This document shows positions 1 through 23,137 of a stretch of DNA of 34,820 nt, piece by piece (position 1 is the stretch's first letter; every line of letters starts with the position of its first letter). Under the pieces are notes generated by a model. The model saw nothing but the letters and a program-made list of their open reading frames with translations, had not been told where the DNA came from and made no database searches. Location of the stretch: assembly GCA_020344955.1 (NCBI GenBank), contig CP070831.1:155056-189875 (forward strand), written 5' to 3'. The stretch comes from Promethearchaeota archaeon. Lineage in GTDB: Archaea > Asgardarchaeota > Lokiarchaeia > Sigyniarchaeales > SOKP01. Made by a program: the position numbers and the translations under genes.

Positions 1-840
1 AAGTTTAGTTCTACTTTAGAAGGAGAAACCTTACTCATGCTATTTGAAAAACCTTCCTTGAGAACAAGGATCTCATTTGAAACTGGGATGCAACAATTAG
101 GTGGTCATGCGATATTTTATTCAATAAAAGATTCTCCCTTAGGTAAAAAAGAGAATATATCAGACACAGCAAAAGTTGCATCTCGATTTGTGAATCTCAT
201 TGCTGCCCGTGTTTTCAAACGACAAGATATTTGGGATCTTGCTAAATATGCTGATGTTCCAGTCATAAACATGCTCGATGATTTTGCTCATCCTTGCCAG
301 ATTCTTGGTGATTTTCAAACGATCAAAGAAAAGAAGAATACATTAGAAAAAATGAAACTCTCCTATTTTGGTGACGCATACAATAATGTTACTTATGATT
401 TAATGCGAATGTGTGCTATATTTGGTTGGAGAATGGATGTAGCATGCCCTAATGCCCCAGAATATTCACCTGAGCAAATTGTACTAGATGAGGCTTCAGA
501 AATATCTAAAAAAACTGGTGCTACTATAAGATTAGTTAATGATGCTATAGAAGCTGCTCAAGATTCTGATGTGGTGTATACTGATAGTTGGATGAGTTAT
601 GGAATACCTCAGGAACAAGAAGAAGAACGAAAAAAAGCTTTTATGCCTTTTCAAGTTACATCGTTAGTTATGAAAGCAGCAAAAACAGATGCTGTCTTTA
701 TGAATTGTCTACCTGCTATGAGAGGATATGAACAAACCGCAGAAGTCATCGATGGTCCTCAATCAATTGTTTTTGATGAGGCTGAAAATAGATTACATAT
801 TCAAAAAGCTATTATGCTCTTTTTAAGAGATAAATTTTAG
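1..840 (+). CDS. Ornithine carbamoyltransferase-like protein, 5' end cut by window edge
   Basis: Transfers a carbamoyl group between carbamoyl phosphate and an amine, most likely ornithine/citrulline. The reading frame is open to base 1 and the codons before the internal ATG at 37 fit the family (LEGETLLMLFEKPS), so the true start lies upstream and 279 residues are visible. Family marks are FEKPSLRTR (carbamoyl-phosphate loop), HPCQILGD in the middle, and the C-terminal FDEAENRLHIQKAI. Two amine-binding motifs are unusual: SYGIP stands where ornithine enzymes have SMG, and NCLP replaces HCLP. The substrate is therefore less certain than the family. A carbamate kinase and an ornithine aminotransferase further right favour catabolic citrulline cleavage. 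Putrescine or another carbamoyl acceptor remains possible. Confidence 0.85.
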   Translation, partial: KFSSTLEGETLLMLFEKPSLRTRISFETGMQQLGGHAIFYSIKDSPLGKKENISDTAKVASRFVNLIAARVFKRQDIWDLAKYADVPVINMLDDFAHPCQILGDFQTIKEKKNTLEKMKLSYFGDAYNNVTYDLMRMCAIFGWRMDVACPNAPEYSPEQIVLDEASEISKKTGATIRLVNDAIEAAQDSDVVYTDSWMSYGIPQEQEEERKKAFMPFQVTSLVMKAAKTDAVFMNCLPAMRGYEQTAEVIDGPQSIVFDEAENRLHIQKAIMLFLRDKF

Positions 841-951: not shown

Positions 952-1128
952 ATGAACGAGCCTGCAATAGAGGAAGAAGATAAACCGGAAGATTTAATAT
1001 TCGCTGAACAACTAATAAAAGAAAATCTTCAATCCATTATGAAATATCTTTTACCTAAGGCTGACTTTTATAAAAAATTAGAAATTTCTTGCATCAATTT
1101 AATGCCCAATGGCATAAAAAAAGAATGA
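952..1128 (+). pseudogene. Eroded C-terminal fragment of a third TPR-TIR paralogue
   Basis: A 58-codon ORF (ATG at 952, stop TGA 1126-1128). Its second half reads LQSIMKYLLPKADFYKKL. This is plainly related to the extreme C-termini of the two downstream TIR proteins, IQAIMKYLMPEDEFYEKI and IQHIKKYLMPESKFYEKL. The remainder of the TIR domain, including the region of the catalytic Glu, is absent, and I see no other TIR remnant between 841 and 951. It ends 16 bases before the next TIR gene. I read it as the residue of a lost third copy from tandem duplication. A translated small protein cannot be excluded. Confidence 0.6.
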
Positions 1129-1144
1129 TATAAATAGGAAGGAT

Positions 1145-3505
1145 ATGTCGAGCACAAATAAAAACTTAAAAAAAGCAGAAGCTCTTATGAATGAAGGTAA
1201 AGATTTTGAAGCTATCCCTATCTTAAACAAACTCGGGGAGGGGGAACAATTGTCTTCATCTGATCAAATATTATTAAGCTCTCTTTTTATTAGACTAGGT
1301 AAGTGGGTAGAAGCTTATAATACTGCTGAACAAGCATATCAGAAGACTCAACATTCTACGGATTACTTACAATCAATAAATGCTGTTCTAAATATGGCAT
1401 CTGCTAAAGCAATGTGTGTTGATTTGGATAAAGCCTCTGATTTAGTAAAAATAAGTGAAGAATTATATAACAGACTTTCTCAACAATCATCAACAAAACT
1501 TGAACAAATAGAAGCTTATATTGCATATATTAAAGGAGTAATTCTCTTCTTTCAAGGTAATTCAAATGAAAGTATGAAATATATTGCTCAGAGTCTTGAA
1601 TTGCGTGAAAAGATAGGGAATAAATATGAGATTGCTGAATCCCTTAATGGACTTGCAACCATATATAATATATCAAAAAGTGATTTTGATCATTATTTAT
1701 TGTATATAAGACGATGTCATGAAATTGCTGAGGAAATTCATTATCAGAGATTAATTGCTTATTCAAATCATAATCTTGGTGTAGCATACTATATAAAGGG
1801 GGATTTTGAAAAATCTTTATCATATTATGGACTAGCTCTGAAATATTTCGAAAAAACAAATGATTTACTTTTTCATACTGGGACTCTGAGTAATATTGCA
1901 TTGGTTTACCGAGAGAAAGGAGAATTAGACAAATCAATAGAATTAATGGAAAAATATTTAGTAATACAGGAAAGTATTGGGAATAATTGGATGGTTGCTA
2001 TTAATTATGCAAATTTAATACAATTATACATTAATAAGGCTGAAATTAAACCTGCTCAAGAGTATTTAGAAAGATTTAAAAAATTAAAAAATGCAGTGGG
2101 AACTCCACAAATTAATAATCATTATCGTTTTAGTGAAGCTCTCATTTTAAAAACTAGCCTAAGAACTCAAAATCGAGCGAAAGCAGAAAAACTGCTGAGG
2201 TTATTAATTCGTGAAGAGAATGCGGGTGCTGAAACAAAAATAGAAGCATTAATTCATTTATGTGATCTATTACTCGATGAGCTTAAAATAACAAGTGAGA
2301 TGGATATAATAGAAGAAATAAAACCATTAATTAATGAATTATTATATTTAACTGAGAAATCGCGCAATTATAAATTTTTTGCAGAAACATATGTTTTACA
2401 AGCTAAATTGGCTTTAATAATACTAGACTTGAAAGAAGCTCGTTACTTATTCTCCAAAGCGCAAGATATTGCAGAAAAATATGGTTATGAACTATTAGGA
2501 CAGAAAATTTCAAGCGAACATGATGATTTACTCAAAAAATTGGACTTATGGGAGAATTTAAAAGAATCTAATGCCCCAATCGAAGATCGATTGGAATTAG
2601 TTAGTTTAAGTGATCAAACATTGCGTATGATTAGAAAAACTACAGGAAAAACTCCTAGCTTGAAAGTTGAAAAACCTGTTTTGCTTGTTATATTAACTAG
2701 TAAGGGTTCTATCTTATTATTTAATCCATTTTCTTCAGAGATGACGATAAATGAAAATAACATTAGTGAATTTTTATCTTCTTTCACAACATTGAGTGAT
2801 AAAGCTTTTTCTGAAAAATTTGATCGTATAAAATTCGGTGATAATACCATTCTCATTAGATTGATTGACCATTTTACTATATGTTATATGTTTCAAGGCC
2901 AGACTTATAGTGCTCGACAGAAATTAATTCACTTTTCTGATTCTATAAAAAAAAATATGAAAATTAAGGAAATATTAGAAAATGCTGAAAATAAAGGTAT
3001 AATTGTAAAAATAAGTGAAACCCCTTCTCTTGAGGAATTAATAATCGAGGGTTTTATGTCTGATCCAAAAGATTTTCAAGTCCCATTTAAAGCATACGTG
3101 GGAGATGAGCCTTATACATTCGTCAGCTATGCTCATACTAACAAACTTCAAGTTTATCCAATATTAGACACTATTAACAATATGGGAATTAATATCTGGT
3201 ATGATGAAGGAATTCCAGTTAGTGAAAATTGGAAAAGATCGATTGTAGAAAATCTAGAACGATGTAGTGCATTTCTCGTATTTATTTCACCCCAAATAAT
3301 TGATTCTGAATATGTAAGAAAAGAAATTAGTTTTGCACTTAAGAAGAAGAAGCCATTTATAGGTGTTTATTTAAAAGAGATGGAATTACCCAGTGAATTA
3401 GAATTTGAAATCGCTGACATTCAGGCTATAATGAAATATCTCATGCCTGAAGATGAGTTTTATGAAAAAATAAATCAAGTACTTTCTGATACTTTATCTT
3501 CTTAA
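1145..3505 (+). CDS. TPR / longin-roadblock-like / TIR domain protein (paralogue 1)
   Basis: A 786-residue cytoplasmic protein. Residues 1-470 are helical tetratricopeptide-type repeats (for example FEKSLSYYGLALKYFEK and LDKSIELMEKYL units). Residues about 510-610 form an alpha/beta unit (LLVILTSKGSILLF, later ICYMFQGQTYSARQKLIHF) that resembles longin/roadblock-like domains of Asgard proteins. Residues 655-786 are a TIR domain: FVSYAH, then IWYDEGIPVSENW, then YVRKEISFAL. Glu727 in KEI aligns with the catalytic Glu region of NAD-cleaving TIRs such as SARM1. By family this suggests a sensor-scaffold joined to an NAD+-consuming or nucleotide-signal-making effector. An AGGAAGG site sits just before the ATG. 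The protein shares its full architecture with the gene at 4256. The TIR call is firm; the middle-domain call is inferred from pattern. Confidence 0.85.
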   Translation: MSSTNKNLKKAEALMNEGKDFEAIPILNKLGEGEQLSSSDQILLSSLFIRLGKWVEAYNTAEQAYQKTQHSTDYLQSINAVLNMASAKAMCVDLDKASDLVKISEELYNRLSQQSSTKLEQIEAYIAYIKGVILFFQGNSNESMKYIAQSLELREKIGNKYEIAESLNGLATIYNISKSDFDHYLLYIRRCHEIAEEIHYQRLIAYSNHNLGVAYYIKGDFEKSLSYYGLALKYFEKTNDLLFHTGTLSNIALVYREKGELDKSIELMEKYLVIQESIGNNWMVAINYANLIQLYINKAEIKPAQEYLERFKKLKNAVGTPQINNHYRFSEALILKTSLRTQNRAKAEKLLRLLIREENAGAETKIEALIHLCDLLLDELKITSEMDIIEEIKPLINELLYLTEKSRNYKFFAETYVLQAKLALIILDLKEARYLFSKAQDIAEKYGYELLGQKISSEHDDLLKKLDLWENLKESNAPIEDRLELVSLSDQTLRMIRKTTGKTPSLKVEKPVLLVILTSKGSILLFNPFSSEMTINENNISEFLSSFTTLSDKAFSEKFDRIKFGDNTILIRLIDHFTICYMFQGQTYSARQKLIHFSDSIKKNMKIKEILENAENKGIIVKISETPSLEELIIEGFMSDPKDFQVPFKAYVGDEPYTFVSYAHTNKLQVYPILDTINNMGINIWYDEGIPVSENWKRSIVENLERCSAFLVFISPQIIDSEYVRKEISFALKKKKPFIGVYLKEMELPSELEFEIADIQAIMKYLMPEDEFYEKINQVLSDTLSS

Positions 3506-3537
3506 AAAACTGATATTATTAATAAAAAGTTAAAAAT

Positions 3538-3577
3538 GATGAAATGTAGTAATTAAATTAATTCAATTAATTTCATC
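3538..3577 (+). promoter_or_regulatory. Imperfect hairpin upstream of the DUF4231 gene
   Basis: GATGAAAT at 3538-3545 is the exact inverse of ATTTCATC at 3570-3577. Inside, TAATT and AATTA can extend the stem after a four-base bulge. It lies between the first TIR gene and the DUF4231 start at 3601. It could be an operator or a transcript-end structure. The surroundings are very AT-rich, so chance is a real possibility. Confidence 0.35.
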
Positions 3578-3600
3578 AATAAAAATTAAAATGACTTAAT

Positions 3601-4053
3601 ATGGATGAATCCGAATTTGAGAAATATCTAAAGGAGAGATATAAAAATCAAATAAGTTGGTATGAAAAGAGATCTAAAAGTTGTAAAAATTGGTTTAGGT
3701 ATCTTGAGATAGTATTAATCATTTGCTCTGCAATGACCCCGATATTAATAGTTATTGATTACATATCTGAAGCATTTACAACTTTGCGATGGATTTCTAT
3801 ACTTACTTCCGTTCTAACTGTAGTTCTAGCTTCGTTGATCCGAACATTTAAGTTCCAGGAGCATTGGATAAATTACAGGACTACCGTTGAATTACTAAAA
3901 AAAGAACAATATTATTTTAAAGCAAATGCTAATGAATATGGAACAGTTCAAGATAAGAAAGCATTATTCGTTAAACGGGTTGAAAATTTGATCTCCCAAG
4001 CACATACTAAATGGATTGATGAATATAAATTACACTTAGAGGCAGAAGAATAA
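3601..4053 (+). CDS. DUF4231 / SLATT-type two-helix membrane protein
   Basis: A 150-residue protein with the DUF4231 layout: an N-terminal amphipathic stretch (YLKERYKNQISWYEKRSK), two membrane helices at about residues 34-54 and 62-80, then a conserved cytoplasmic part (EHWINYRTTVELLKKEQYYF, residues 87-106) and a C-terminal helix with AHTKWIDEY. DUF4231 belongs to the SLATT group of two-TM proteins. These are predicted to form membrane pores and are often coupled to nucleotide-signalling or NAD-processing partners in prokaryotic conflict systems. Here it lies between two TPR-TIR paralogues on the same strand, 95 bases after the first and about 200 before the second. I infer that it is the membrane effector, with TIR activity providing the trigger. 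No SD motif is visible; the ATG gives the family's normal length. Confidence 0.75.
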   Translation: MDESEFEKYLKERYKNQISWYEKRSKSCKNWFRYLEIVLIICSAMTPILIVIDYISEAFTTLRWISILTSVLTVVLASLIRTFKFQEHWINYRTTVELLKKEQYYFKANANEYGTVQDKKALFVKRVENLISQAHTKWIDEYKLHLEAEE

Positions 4054-4255
4054 AGGAACATTATAAATTACTCGTAAAAATTGAGTAAATCCTCTAAATT
4101 TTAAAATTTCTTTTTGAAATCCTATTTTTCCCCTTTAAATAATGATTTTCCAGTTATACCAAACCAGATATAAATTAGGGATAATCTTTATATTAATAGG
4201 AAACAATTAAAAATAGTATAAATCTATTAAACAATAGAAATCGAGTATTTATCTG

Positions 4256-6640
4256 ATGCCAAACTCAGAATCAATGGGATTAATTCAAATAGAGAAACTA
4301 ATTGATAAAGGAGAGCATGAAGAAGCTTTATTGTTAATTAAAGATTTCGAGGAGAAGGGAGAAGAATCTCTTGAAGATATTGTATCTTTCCATCTACTCA
4401 AGTGCAAACTTTTTTTTCAACAGGGTTTATTTAAAAAAGTTGTGAAGTTTGGCCAGGAAACTTACAAAGAGAGTTTAGGTTTAGGAAAAAGTCTTCTTTC
4501 TATTGATGCCTTGATAAGAATAGCTGCTGCTTTAAGTGAACTTCATGAACATGAGAATGAATTTAATACCATTAAACAGGGAGAAGCTCTTTTGAAAACA
4601 TTAAAACGAGATTTACACAAAAACTACGAGAAAAGCGAAGCTTCAATACATTATGCCAAAGCCCAGTATTATGAAAAAATCCGTAATATAGATTTGGCAC
4701 TAGAGCACTCTGAGCGCAGTTTAGTTTTGCGAGAAAAATTTGGTGCGAAACAGGAAGTTGTTAGTTCTCTTTTACAATTTGGTTGGATAATTGGTGTTCA
4801 TAAAGCCGAATTAGACAGTGGTTTAGAATTTATAAAACAGAGTATTACTATCGCCAGGGAAAACAATATAAAATTCTATCTAGGTAAGGGACTTGACTTT
4901 ATCGGTTGTTTATATGGTTTTAAAGGGGAAATAGATCTTGCTATTTCAAATTTTGAACAAAGTATAAAGATTTTCAAAGAGTTAAACAATAAAAGCCGTA
5001 TGGCTGGTGTTCTTAATAATGTAGGTGAAAATTATAGAAAGAGAGGTGAACTAGATCGTGCATTAGATTGCTTAAAACAAAGCTTAACACTATATGATGA
5101 AGTAGGAGACTTGAAACGTTATGCAGGAATATATGATTTCTTAATTCAAGTTTTAATTGAAAAGGGTGATTTTGAACATGCACATCAAAGACTTAAAAAA
5201 TTAGAGGAACTAAAGAATCTAATAGAAGATAAAGGTATTGATTATAGTTATCTCTTAAACAAAGCTATGCTATTAAAAACAAGTCTTCGAGCCCATAATC
5301 GAGTTAAAGCTGAAGAAATATTAAAATTACTCCTTGAGGATTATGAAATTGATAAATATTCAACGAATAAAGTTTTATTTAACTTATGTGAACTGCTTCT
5401 AATTGAATTACAAATAACCAAAGATTTAGAAGTTTTAGAAGAGTTGGAATCCTATATTGCTCAACTGATTGAAAGTGCTGAAAAATCAAATTCATTTTGG
5501 ATATTAGGAGAAACTTATCTATTGCAAGCGAAATTAGCTTTGATATCTTTGGATTTGAAAAAGGCGAGACAATTATTAACACAAGGTCAACAGATTGCTG
5601 AAAAAAATGGACTCAAATTACTAGCTATGAAAATTTCGAACGAACATGATATCGTAATTAGACAATTAAATATATGGGAAAATTTGAAGAATTCAGATAG
5701 TTCTTTAGAAGAACGTATAGAACTCGCCAGATTAGACGAAGAAATAAATTTAATAGCCAAAAAAAAAATAACCACACAAGATGAATTTGAAATTGAGCAA
5801 TCAATTTTACTTGCTATCGTTTCTAAGAAAGGGAATATATTATTTTCTAATCCTTTCACTGCAGATATGACATTCGATGTTAATCGCATTGCAGAACTTC
5901 TTTCCTCTTTTAATATCTTAAGCGATGAAATTTTTTCAGAAGCTCTCGATCGTGTAAAATTTCTAGATTTTACATTGCTTATGAAAGAAGTAAAAACGTT
6001 AATTATCTGTTATATGTTTAAGGGGCGAACATATGGTGCACTTCAGAAATTATCTCATTTCTGTGAAACACTAAAAAATAATGTTGAAATATTAGAAACT
6101 CTTAATTCTGGAGTTAAAAAGACACAAGTTATGACATTGAACGATATTCCTAAAATTGAGGAGTTAATTTCCGAGAGTTTTCTTTCTGATCCTCAAAAAT
6201 TTCAAGTCCCATTTAAAGCCTATGAAGGAGAAGAACCATACTTATTCGTAAGTTATGCTCATGTAGATAAACTTCATGTCTATCCAATAATAGATTATCT
6301 AAATAAGGCAAACATAAAAATTTGGTATGATGAAGGAATTCCTATAAGTGAAAATTGGAGAAAAATTATCGTAGAAAATATTGAAAAATGTAATGCTTTT
6401 CTTGTTTTTATCACACCACATATATTAGATTCCGATTATGTTCAAAAAGAAATTAATTTTGCGTTAATTCGACATAAAGCATTCTTTGCTGTTTACTTAA
6501 AAGAAACAAAATTACCAAGTGAATTGGAATTTGAAATCAGCAGCATTCAACACATAAAAAAGTATCTTATGCCAGAATCTAAATTCTATGAGAAGTTAAC
6601 AACAAAATTATCTTTCTTATTAATTTCGAAATGTGAATGA
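4256..6640 (+). CDS. TPR / longin-roadblock-like / TIR domain protein (paralogue 2)
   Basis: 794 residues with the same three-part layout as the protein starting at 1145. Helical TPR repeats fill residues 1-475 (LDRALDCLKQSLTLYDE is a clear unit). A longin/roadblock-like unit follows at about 514-615 (ILLAIVSKKGNILFSNPF, ICYMFKGRTYGALQKLSHF), then the linker FLSDPQKFQVPFKAYEG and a TIR domain from about 660 to the end. TIR marks are FVSYAH, IWYDEGIPISENW and YVQKEINFAL with Glu732 at the presumed catalytic position. The TIR half and linker are the best conserved between the paralogues, while the TPR halves differ more, which suits different recognition partners sharing one output. A TATA-like box (TATAAATC near 4217-4224) lies about 35 bases before the ATG, so it may have its own promoter. 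Confidence 0.85.
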   Translation: MPNSESMGLIQIEKLIDKGEHEEALLLIKDFEEKGEESLEDIVSFHLLKCKLFFQQGLFKKVVKFGQETYKESLGLGKSLLSIDALIRIAAALSELHEHENEFNTIKQGEALLKTLKRDLHKNYEKSEASIHYAKAQYYEKIRNIDLALEHSERSLVLREKFGAKQEVVSSLLQFGWIIGVHKAELDSGLEFIKQSITIARENNIKFYLGKGLDFIGCLYGFKGEIDLAISNFEQSIKIFKELNNKSRMAGVLNNVGENYRKRGELDRALDCLKQSLTLYDEVGDLKRYAGIYDFLIQVLIEKGDFEHAHQRLKKLEELKNLIEDKGIDYSYLLNKAMLLKTSLRAHNRVKAEEILKLLLEDYEIDKYSTNKVLFNLCELLLIELQITKDLEVLEELESYIAQLIESAEKSNSFWILGETYLLQAKLALISLDLKKARQLLTQGQQIAEKNGLKLLAMKISNEHDIVIRQLNIWENLKNSDSSLEERIELARLDEEINLIAKKKITTQDEFEIEQSILLAIVSKKGNILFSNPFTADMTFDVNRIAELLSSFNILSDEIFSEALDRVKFLDFTLLMKEVKTLIICYMFKGRTYGALQKLSHFCETLKNNVEILETLNSGVKKTQVMTLNDIPKIEELISESFLSDPQKFQVPFKAYEGEEPYLFVSYAHVDKLHVYPIIDYLNKANIKIWYDEGIPISENWRKIIVENIEKCNAFLVFITPHILDSDYVQKEINFALIRHKAFFAVYLKETKLPSELEFEISSIQHIKKYLMPESKFYEKLTTKLSFLLISKCE

Positions 6641-6806: not shown

Positions 6807-7724
6807 ATGAAAACGATAATTGTTGCTCTTGGCGGAAATGCCCTAATCAAGCCAGGCGATGAAGGTACTATTGAGGAAATGATGGAAAATTTAAAAGCTC
6901 CAATTAAGCAAATTGCAGAGCTTTCTAAGAACTATAATCTCGTAATCTCGCATGGAAATGGGCCACAAGTTGGACTATTGTTGCTTCAACAAGAAGCAAC
7001 CGAGTTTGTAAGAAAAAGGCCACTGCAAATTTTAGTAGCAGAGACTCAAGGTCAGATTGGTTTTATGATCGAAAGTACTTTAGATGAAGAGCTTATGAAA
7101 ATAGGTTTAGATGAAGAAAAACTTTTCTTAACAATTCTTACTTATGTGAAAGTTGATGCTAACGACCCAGCATTTAAAAATCCCACAAAACCAATCGGTC
7201 CGGCTTATCCTGTTCGTACTCAACCTGGACAAGTGAAAACAGCCAAAGGCTGGAGACGAGTCGTACCATCACCTAAGCCGATAAAAATATATCAGTGGCG
7301 AGAAATAAAAAAATTGATGGAACTTGGAAGCTGGATAGTTATAGCTTGTGGAGGAGGCGGTATCCCTGTTATAAAAGAAGAAAAGAAGTTATATGGGGTA
7401 GAAGCTGTTATAGATAAAGATCTTGCGAGTTCAAAATTAGCTGAGCAAATAGGAGCAGATATACTTCTTATTGCTACAGATGTTGAAAAAGTTGCTCTTA
7501 ATTATGGAACTCCTGAACAGGAGGATTTGGAAAAACTCTCTGTATCTGAAGCAAAGCAGTATTTGGAAGAAGGTCAATTTCCTGTTGGAAGTATGGGCCC
7601 CAAAATCCAAGCTATTATTAATTTTTTGGAAGCGGGAGGAGAGAAAGCAATAATAACCTCAATAGAAAAAATAAAAGAATCTTTAGAAGGAAAAGCTGGA
7701 ACTTATATTTATATGGATAACTAA
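6807..7724 (+). CDS. arcC: Carbamate kinase
   Basis: Makes ATP from carbamoyl phosphate and ADP, releasing carbamate, which decays to ammonia and CO2; cytoplasmic. The 305-residue length is normal for the family. It opens with IIVALGGNALIKPGDEG, has SHGNGPQVG near residue 50, the central ACGGGGIPV glycine loop, the DKDLASSKLA segment and the terminal GSMGPKIQA motif, all typical of carbamate kinases in the amino-acid-kinase fold. It is separated from the carbamoyltransferase at 1-840 by the TIR island, and it converges with the ornithine aminotransferase gene three bases away. Together these indicate energy-yielding citrulline/arginine breakdown. No arginine deiminase is in the window. Confidence 0.93.
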   Translation: MKTIIVALGGNALIKPGDEGTIEEMMENLKAPIKQIAELSKNYNLVISHGNGPQVGLLLLQQEATEFVRKRPLQILVAETQGQIGFMIESTLDEELMKIGLDEEKLFLTILTYVKVDANDPAFKNPTKPIGPAYPVRTQPGQVKTAKGWRRVVPSPKPIKIYQWREIKKLMELGSWIVIACGGGGIPVIKEEKKLYGVEAVIDKDLASSKLAEQIGADILLIATDVEKVALNYGTPEQEDLEKLSVSEAKQYLEEGQFPVGSMGPKIQAIINFLEAGGEKAIITSIEKIKESLEGKAGTYIYMDN

Positions 7725-22727: not shown

Positions 22728-22936
22728 TTATTATAGCAATATATTATTTGCCATGATTATTGAAGATTTCTAAACAGAATTGAGTTAGGATATTATGTTT
22801 CACAACATTAAATTAATATTTACCTTATCTGTGTAAACAGAAATTTGGCTCTGATTATATTCTATAAGAGAAGAATTTTTGTTTTGATAATATTTTGGTG
22901 TATTTAGAAAGAGTTATTCAGGTGGTGTTGAAAAAA

Positions 22937-23110
22937 ATGTCAAGCAAATTAGTATGTAGTATCTGTGGCTCTGAAAAATCGATTCCGGTATGTTGTGAAA
23001 AATCGATGATGGTGAAGGATGGCTTTTTACTTTGTTGTTGTTCAGATGAATGTGGATATCAGCCCATTCCTGAATGTTGTGGAAAAAAGATGGAATATAT
23101 TTATCATTGA
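22937..23110 (+). CDS. Small Cys-rich putative metal-binding protein
   Basis: 57 residues with ten cysteines: Cys7-x-x-Cys10, a CC pair at 19-20, CCC at 33-35, Cys39 and CC at 47-48. A short unit occurs twice: IPVCCEKSMM (residues 16-25) and IPECCGKKME (residues 44-53). Such spacing suggests zinc or iron binding, like short zinc-ribbon or rubredoxin-like proteins, but I recognise no exact family. The ATG at 22937 is chosen over one 14 codons upstream because the added residues are not Cys-rich and a GGTGGTG stretch precedes it. It is transcribed away from kat; the spacer of about 209 bases holds no other gene. Confidence 0.65.
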   Translation: MSSKLVCSICGSEKSIPVCCEKSMMVKDGFLLCCCSDECGYQPIPECCGKKMEYIYH

Positions 23111-23137
23111 TTAAAAAAATAGGATATAAAAAAATAT

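What the first reader, a model, noticed from the sequence alone, without database searches (positions are those of the whole stretch)
1145..6640. Paired TPR-longin-TIR proteins flanking a DUF4231 membrane protein: candidate NAD-signalling defence island
Two full-length paralogues with identical three-part architecture and intact catalytic-type TIR glutamates (Glu727, Glu732) bracket a SLATT-type two-TM protein on one strand. TIR domains are known to cleave NAD+ or make cyclic nucleotide signals, and SLATT proteins are predicted pore effectors. I infer that the TPR arms sense a partner, the TIR makes a signal or depletes NAD+, and DUF4231 acts at the membrane. I know of no named system with this exact three-gene layout.
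Basis: partly seen in the sequence, partly recalled or inferred. Interest (0 to 1): 0.85.

Follow-up and report, generated by a model that had tools for sequence, protein, structure and literature searches.

The report
Asgard TIR immune locus, swappable partners
A Lokiarchaeon locus carries two probable immune signalling proteins (a sensor arm, a small-GTPase-type platform and a TIR enzyme domain) around a small membrane protein of a kind often found beside TIR genes in phages and plasmids; sister genomes pair the same signalling proteins with an alarmone-synthetase-like partner instead.

Summary
TIR1 (1145-3505) and TIR2 (4256-6640) are paralogues (41% identical): TPR arm, longin-like domain, TIR domain with the putative catalytic Glu (E727/E732). 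They flank a two-TM DUF4231/SLATT gene (3601-4053).

I found the exact layout nowhere else: none of 8 other Lokiarchaeal loci with this TIR protein shows DUF4231, which exceeds Pfam's cut-off in only 3 of 227 Asgard genomes. Yet TIR-DUF4231 pairing recurs: a ThsB-type TIR gene follows DUF4231 in 11 of 11 phage loci and 3 of 4 plasmids opened, and such phage pairs are in print (PMC9503650). In 5 of the 8 loci the next gene is instead RelA/SpoT-TPR-S-SLOG (TRPM-type); from the RelA side, 9 of 14 genomes with a strong match have a TIR gene next door.

The cassette fills a variable slot (ornithine carbamoyltransferase / carbamate kinase), empty in 3 of 14 same-genus genomes and holding VapBC in 3. 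TPR arms diverge more than TIR domains; TIR2 is a domain chimera. Nine of 26 TIR-less family loci adjoin a Ras-like GTPase; none of 9 TIR-bearing loci does.

Best reading: a TIR nucleotide-signalling conflict module with variable sensors and exchangeable effectors. Function is inferred; no activity was measured.

The parts
1..840 (+). ornithine carbamoyltransferase (cut by the window start); left border of the variable slot
   Evidence: Pfam OTCace 183.1 bits and OTCace_N 125.2 bits (ornithine rather than aspartate is read from sequence); homologue before CK in all 14 same-genus intervals examined
952..1128 (+). 58-aa remnant ORF: N-terminus plus C-terminus of a third TPR-longin-TIR gene with the middle missing
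   Evidence: 25 aa align with the first 25 aa of L127's protein, the rest with its C-terminus; 0 of 2,000 shuffles reach either score
1145..3505 (+). TIR1: TPR arm, longin-like domain, TIR domain (786 aa)
3323..3325 (+). codon of putative catalytic Glu727 of TIR1
   Evidence: residue numbering; codon position computed from it
3601..4053 (+). DUF4231/SLATT_1 two-TM protein (150 aa), putative membrane effector
   Evidence: relatives paired with TIR:
4256..6640 (+). TIR2 (794 aa): chimera of a TPR arm from a mostly RelA-linked clade with longin+TIR of the OTC-slot clade
4274..5689 (+). TIR2 TPR arm (residues 7-478)
5798..6121 (+). TIR2 longin-like domain (residues 515-622)
6239..6625 (+). TIR2 TIR domain (about residues 662-790)
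6449..6451 (+). codon of putative catalytic Glu732 of TIR2
6807..7724 (+). carbamate kinase; right border of the variable slot
   Evidence: Pfam AA_kinase 91.7 bits (carbamate kinase is read from sequence)
22728..23137 (.). second slot, without a recognised gene here; in sister genomes (G001, G015) it holds a TIR protein plus RelA/SpoT-TPR-S-SLOG

Best explanation
A TIR-based nucleotide-signalling conflict (probably anti-virus) module. The variable TPR arms sense a trigger. The longin-like domain, inherited from a family of probable small-GTPase partners, serves as a regulatory or dimerisation platform. The TIR domain then turns NAD+ into a signal, or simply depletes it. Here the likely responder is the DUF4231/SLATT membrane protein; in sister loci it is a RelA/SpoT-type synthetase with a TRPM-type SLOG sensor. 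SHOWN: genes, domains, conserved Glu, variable slot, TIR-DUF4231 and TIR-RelA-SLOG neighbourhoods, domain shuffling, Ras adjacency of some TIR-less paralogues. INFERRED: NAD+ chemistry, identity of the signal, effector action, defence role.
For: TIR Glu invariant in 12 of 12 aligned sequences and aligned with AbTIR. DUF4231 relatives are followed by a ThsB_TIR gene above Pfam's cut-off in 11 of 11 phage loci opened (of 33 matching records, many near-identical) and in 3 of 4 plasmids opened (of 5 matching); DUF4231 lies near HEAT-TIR in G041. RelA/SpoT-TPR-S-SLOG starts 47-63 nt downstream in 5 of 8 TIR loci (one copy cut by a contig end before its SLOG part). From the RelA side, 9 of 14 genomes with a match at E 1e-90 or better have a TIR gene adjacent and 2 more within about 6 kb. 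RelA synthetase motifs are kept (motifs recalled); SLOG: LSDAT_prok in 10 of 12 members at E up to 1, best 3.4e-8. The slot is variable: 3 of 14 empty, 2 of 14 TIR, 3 of 14 VapBC. Tandem pairs: first two thirds of the TPR arm 23-35% vs TIR 65-95% identical; TIR2 chimera supported by trees: 100/99 for TPR, 100/98 for longin, 100/99 for TIR.
Against: No activity data. DUF4231 beside this TIR protein occurs once (0 of 8 other loci), so a passenger gene is possible; no ligand-binding domain was matched in it. Borders are metabolic. PADLOC models give only partial, weak hits. Tyr (Met in one) stands where the aligned PDB TIR sequences have Trp, four residues before the Glu. The last third of the TPR arm is 48-59% identical, and TIR-less paralogues also diverge more in TPR than in longin, so TPR divergence is not special to TIR genes. 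4 of the 9 loci known here (the window, L125, L127, L131) lack RelA in the DNA seen. In the longin tree both window rows are long branches. The RelA model is poor (pLDDT 63.7).
Confidence: 0.6

Rival explanations
1. The TIR proteins are self-contained NAD+-depleting abortive-infection proteins (sensor plus effector in one chain, as in TIR-STAND-TPR proteins). DUF4231 is a separate or accidental neighbour.
For: DUF4231 absent in 8 of 8 other loci; two loci have the TIR gene with no recognised partner (L125, L131); a single-gene TIR-STAND-TPR system protects E. coli (PMC9122126, passages read).
Against: DUF4231 relatives elsewhere sit directly upstream of TIR, and 5 of 8 relatives carry a RelA-type gene just downstream.
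Confidence: 0.22
2. The TIR domain is a non-enzymatic scaffold in small-GTPase signalling; the protein is a housekeeping GTPase regulator that gained a TIR domain.
For: Parent family partly lies beside Ras-like genes: 9 of 26 TIR-less loci; own genome 4 of 15 genes within 300 bp, 4 of 20,000 circular shifts as high.
Against: 0 of 9 TIR-bearing loci, the window included, show a Ras-like gene in the DNA held, with flanks up to 8 kb; the Glu is invariant in 12 of 12; patchy, slot-based distribution.
Confidence: 0.1
3. The locus regulates arginine/ornithine catabolism, being placed between ornithine carbamoyltransferase and carbamate kinase.
For: Same slot in two genomes (window, L127).
Against: 12 of 14 OTC-CK intervals show no TIR gene (phmmer; no listed TIR_2 profile hit falls in them), and 3 are empty; the same TIR family lies elsewhere in other genomes.
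Confidence: 0.04

Closest known systems
TIR-SLATT pairs of Firmicute phages (described in PMC9503650, passages read)
   Same: TIR gene next to a two-TM DUF4231/SLATT gene; window DUF4231 is 29-34% identical to these, 40% in two partial matches
   Different: there DUF4231 precedes a short ThsB-type TIR protein of 132-197 aa; here two TPR-longin-TIR proteins of about 790 aa bracket it
Thoeris (ThsB TIR makes a signal nucleotide that a SLOG-bearing ThsA senses; PMC11204291, start of abstract seen)
   Same: sister loci pair TIR with a SLOG-bearing protein
   Different: SLOG is the TRPM/LSDAT type fused to RelA/SpoT and TPR-S, not SIR2; no homologue of it in the window genome
TIR-STAND-TPR (NLR-like) proteins (PMC9122126, passages read)
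   Same: TIR plus TPR arm
   Different: no STAND NTPase match in TIR1 or TIR2; longin-like domain in the middle; domain order reversed
Asgard longin/roadblock proteins and small GTPases (PMC10933270, passages read)
   Same: longin-like fold; Ras-like neighbours of some TIR-less paralogues
   Different: fused to TPR and TIR; that paper reports that MK-D1 small GTPase genes are generally not in operons with longin genes

Membership tests
DUF4231/SLATT | profile match above cut-off | tested here: met
   PF14015 83.9 bits (cut-off 24.7), PF18181 47.8 (26.3)
DUF4231/SLATT | two membrane segments | tested here: met
   residues 37-55 and 62-80 by hydropathy
enzymatic TIR | TIR domain with active-site Glu | tested here: met
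   TIR_2 above cut-off; E727/E732 invariant in 12 of 12 and aligned with AbTIR
enzymatic TIR | NAD+ cleavage or cyclisation | not testable with these tools
   needs a biochemical assay
TIR-SLATT pair | TIR and SLATT genes adjacent on one strand | tested here: met
   gaps of 95 and 202 bp in the window
TIR-SLATT pair | pairing recurs independently | tested here: met
   phages, staphylococcal and haloarchaeal plasmids; but 0 of 8 loci with this TIR protein, and not on the Halocatena plasmid
Thoeris | SLOG-bearing ThsA partner encoded beside the TIR gene | tested here: not met
   only DUF4231 lies beside the TIR genes; no RelA-SLOG homologue in the genome; other SLOG or SIR2 genes elsewhere in the genome were not searched
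Thoeris | ThsB-type TIR protein | tested here: inconclusive
   ThsB_TIR above cut-off in TIR1 (28.6 vs 21.2), below in TIR2 (16.4)
NLR-like TIR-STAND | STAND/NB-ARC NTPase | tested here: not met
   no NTPase family among Pfam matches
longin | longin fold or profile | tested here: inconclusive
   topology fits; Fuz_longin_1 in 4 of 43 members, best E 0.0029, with unrelated families close behind; no longin from the PDB profile search
defence island | neighbouring known defence genes | tested here: inconclusive
   window borders are metabolic (other window genes read by eye); the slot holds VapBC in 3 of 14 sister genomes

The most novel reading that the evidence does not exclude
Lokiarchaea built an immune receptor by grafting a TIR enzyme onto a Ras-GTPase partner scaffold (TPR plus longin of the MON1/FUZ kind). 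Sensor arms are reshuffled against a near-constant TIR, and the TIR signal is read by exchangeable effectors: a SLATT membrane protein here, and elsewhere a RelA/SpoT synthetase gated by a TRPM-type SLOG, i.e. an apparently unreported TIR-to-alarmone pathway.
Probability: 0.3. Interest if true: 0.85.

Novelty: new variant of a known kind. Interest (0 to 1): 0.64.

Why it matters
[quoted passage not shown] A TIR enzyme fused to a eukaryote-type GTPase platform, with exchangeable membrane or RelA-SLOG partners, would tie two eukaryote-like toolkits together in one archaeal immune protein. It gives concrete testable pairs: TIR with DUF4231, and TIR with RelA-TPR-S-SLOG. The TIR/RelA-SLOG pairing recurs with quite different TIR architectures, which makes a shared nucleotide signal plausible.

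Tried and rejected
Conserved three-gene system: rejected; DUF4231 is absent in 8 of 8 other loci and rare in Asgard. Simple metabolic role: disfavoured by the slot comparison. First gene of each tandem pair orthologous to TIR1: an early idea, not supported by identities or trees. Profile searches of the PDB for the longin-like domain and for the SLOG domain found no relevant structure; Foldseek on the TIR2 model returned TPR or helical-repeat hits in the 50 of 1,386 rows shown. The RelA-TPR-S-SLOG model is too weak to use. phmmer with the window TIR domain proved insensitive: it missed TIR domains that Pfam found (against 111), so absences were checked against the TIR_2 profile search or Pfam where available. 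Literature searches listed no paper that I recognised as describing a TIR/RelA-SLOG pair or a TPR-longin-TIR protein; I saw listings only, not every paper, and the library misses most subscription journals. The 2015 Burroughs et al. paper that I recall as defining SLATT and SLOG families was not found under the id I tried, so prior description there cannot be excluded.

Full report
WHAT IS THERE. Three ORFs on one strand at 1145-3505, 3601-4053 and 4256-6640. The outer two are paralogues, 41% identical over 789 positions, each with TPR matches and a TIR_2 domain above the Pfam cut-off; the middle one is DUF4231 and SLATT_1, with two hydrophobic segments. The putative catalytic Glu (E727 in TIR1, E732 in TIR2) is invariant in the 12 TIR-bearing sequences aligned and aligns with AbTIR (8g83). 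An AlphaFold2 model of TIR2 (pLDDT 80.9) has a long TPR superhelix (7-478), a longin-like b-b-a-b-b-b-a unit (515-608) and the TIR. The longin call is tentative: 4 of 43 family members hit Fuz_longin_1 (best E 0.0029) with unrelated families close behind, and the PDB profile search found none.

A THIRD COPY. A 58-aa ORF at 952-1128 joins the N-terminal 25 aa and the C-terminal end of a TPR-longin-TIR protein like that of L127 (0 of 2,000 shuffles reach either score). It reads as the scar of an internal deletion.

THE PARENT FAMILY. The first ~645 residues belong to a large family, mostly without TIR: 57 of 58 genomes (the window's own included) match the whole protein, in part through TPR or TIR alone, and the window genome has 19 matches to the TIR-less part, TIR1 and TIR2 included, some weak and partial. 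Among 30 fetched loci, 9 of 26 TIR-less ones have a Ras-like GTPase gene within the 1.5-kb flanks (some flanks cut by contig ends), against 0 of 4 TIR-bearing ones; with longer flanks it is 0 of 9 TIR-bearing loci. In the window genome 4 of 15 family genes (the four weakest matches were left out) have a Ras gene starting within 300 bp downstream; 4 of 20,000 circular shifts reach this, mean 0.06 (positions). The family is therefore a likely GTPase partner to which TIR was added.

RELATIVES WITH TIR. A scan of 84,980 species genomes found 213 relatives and kept the best 80, 79 distinct loci; 8 of these encode the protein, one cut by a contig start (L124-L131), all titled Lokiarchaeota or Lokiarchaeia, with 10 such genes. 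None shows a DUF4231 relative in the DNA fetched, by phmmer with the window protein; flanks were up to 8 kb, shorter at contig ends. The DUF4231 profile also has no match in their genomes (genomes identified by contig positions for seven loci, by the same chromosome match for L131). In 5 of 8 (L124, L126, L128, L129, L130) the next gene, 47-63 nt downstream, encodes a RelA/SpoT nucleotidyltransferase, a TPR-S sensor (above or near its cut-off) and a C-terminal domain (L126's copy is cut by the contig end). Ten of 12 such C-terminal domains match LSDAT_prok, the TRPM-type SLOG, at E up to 1 (best 3.4e-8). Residues I recall as the synthetase active site are conserved.

TIR AND RELA-SLOG FROM THE OTHER SIDE. 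The RelA protein matches 30 of 227 Asgard genomes, 14 of them at E 1e-90 or better, a few cut by contig ends. Of these 14, nine have a TIR protein as the adjacent gene (G149, G152, G141, G018, G154, G138, G001, G015, G157; convergent in G138), two have TIR genes within about 6 kb (G017, G045), two show none (G118: Pfam on four neighbours; G028: no TIR_2 profile hit on that contig) and one lies at a contig end (G009). Five of the nine are the loci above, so four adjacent cases are new. Their TIR proteins differ: three have an N-terminal hydrophobic segment, a beta-helix (NosD-type) ectodomain, one further membrane segment and a C-terminal TIR. The window genome has no such RelA match (genome 90.6% complete).

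DUF4231 ELSEWHERE. Four of 227 Asgard genomes match, 3 above cut-off: the window; G041, where DUF4231 lies divergently about 0.7 kb from a HEAT-TIR gene with a second, weak DUF4231 hit between; and G179, on a 3.1-kb contig with QueF, TGT and Ogg-type genes and no TIR. The fourth, G042, is below cut-off and lies in a transporter ORF. The window protein matches 33 phage records (E up to 0.01) and 5 plasmids (E up to 0.001). I opened 11 of the 33 and 4 of the 5. In 11 of 11 phage loci the next gene is a ThsB_TIR protein above cut-off (in S-CoN_Ph20 the DUF4231 match is partial). In 3 of 4 plasmids a ThsB_TIR gene lies directly downstream; Halocatena has SAVED and type III-A CRISPR genes instead. 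Many phage records are near-identical, so the independent number is smaller. PMC9503650 (passages read) already reports TIR beside SLATT in Firmicute phages, naming SN10 and Javan281, with a predicted ADPr-regulated membrane effector role.

THE SLOT. Fourteen of 19 same-genus genomes have the carbamate kinase (two 65-66% identical second copies and one fragment set aside), and all 14 have ornithine carbamoyltransferase upstream. Three intervals are empty (64-65 nt; G007, G014, G011). Eleven hold cargo: TIR genes in 2 (window, G018), VapB plus PIN in 3 (G001, G012, G015; Pfam check on G001 only), a VapB-like gene with a membrane protein in G017, and membrane-protein, LRR or other genes in the rest. 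A second slot of the same cluster, at 22728-23137 in the window and without a recognised gene there, holds TIR plus RelA-TPR-S-SLOG in G001 and G015.

SENSOR SHUFFLING. In the three tandem pairs (window, L126, L129) the first two thirds of the TPR arm are 23-35% identical, the last third 48-59%, the longin domains 43, 82 and 78% and the TIR domains 65, 95 and 71%. Trees place TIR2's TPR arm in a six-row clade (100/99) in which 4 of the 5 others are RelA-linked, but its longin and TIR domains with L127 (100/98 and 100/99; both window rows are long in the longin tree). TIR2 and L127 are 89% identical in TIR and 33% in TPR. L126a and L130 look like similar chimeras, with weaker support. TIR-less pairs also diverge more in the TPR arm than in the longin domain in the adjacent pairs compared, less so in one non-adjacent pair, so this is a family trait, sharpened by exchange.

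MECHANISM. Most likely: TPR arm senses, longin platform gates, TIR makes an NAD-derived signal or depletes NAD+, and a partner responds: DUF4231 here, RelA-SLOG in sister loci. All steps after the anatomy are inference. P about 0.6 for this reading overall; lower for any one step.

NOVELTY. TIR-SLATT and TIR-SLOG logic is known. The TPR-longin-TIR protein and the RelA-SLOG partner are new as far as the listings of my literature searches show, within an open-licence library only.

Noticed in passing
L226 832-6531, L287 2474-7540, L288 2622-5249: Toll-receptor-like layout in Asgard genomes: N-terminal hydrophobic segment, beta-helix (NosD-type) ectodomain, one further membrane segment, C-terminal TIR; each next to RelA-TPR-S-SLOG.
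   Followed up: partly
L073, L074 and loci L008, L011, L014, L016-L020, L026: TPR-longin genes lie beside Ras-like GTPase genes; PMC10933270 says MK-D1 small GTPase genes are generally not in operons with longin genes.
   Followed up: partly
window 22728-23137: Second slot of the same gene cluster, without a recognised gene here, filled with TIR plus RelA-TPR-S-SLOG in G001 and G015.
   Followed up: partly
L253 3-2610 (G179): DUF4231 between a QueF-like and a TGT-like gene, with an Ogg-type glycosylase, on a short Asgard contig; recalls 7-deazaguanine DNA modification loci.
   Followed up: no
L254 5989-12396: Halocatena marina plasmid: DUF4231 next to a SAVED gene and a type III-A CRISPR system.
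   Followed up: no
L225 4025-5875: A protein with four TIR-like repeats in an Asgard genome (contig length fits a Sigynarchaeota record), near two RelA-SLOG genes, one of them broken by a stop.
   Followed up: no
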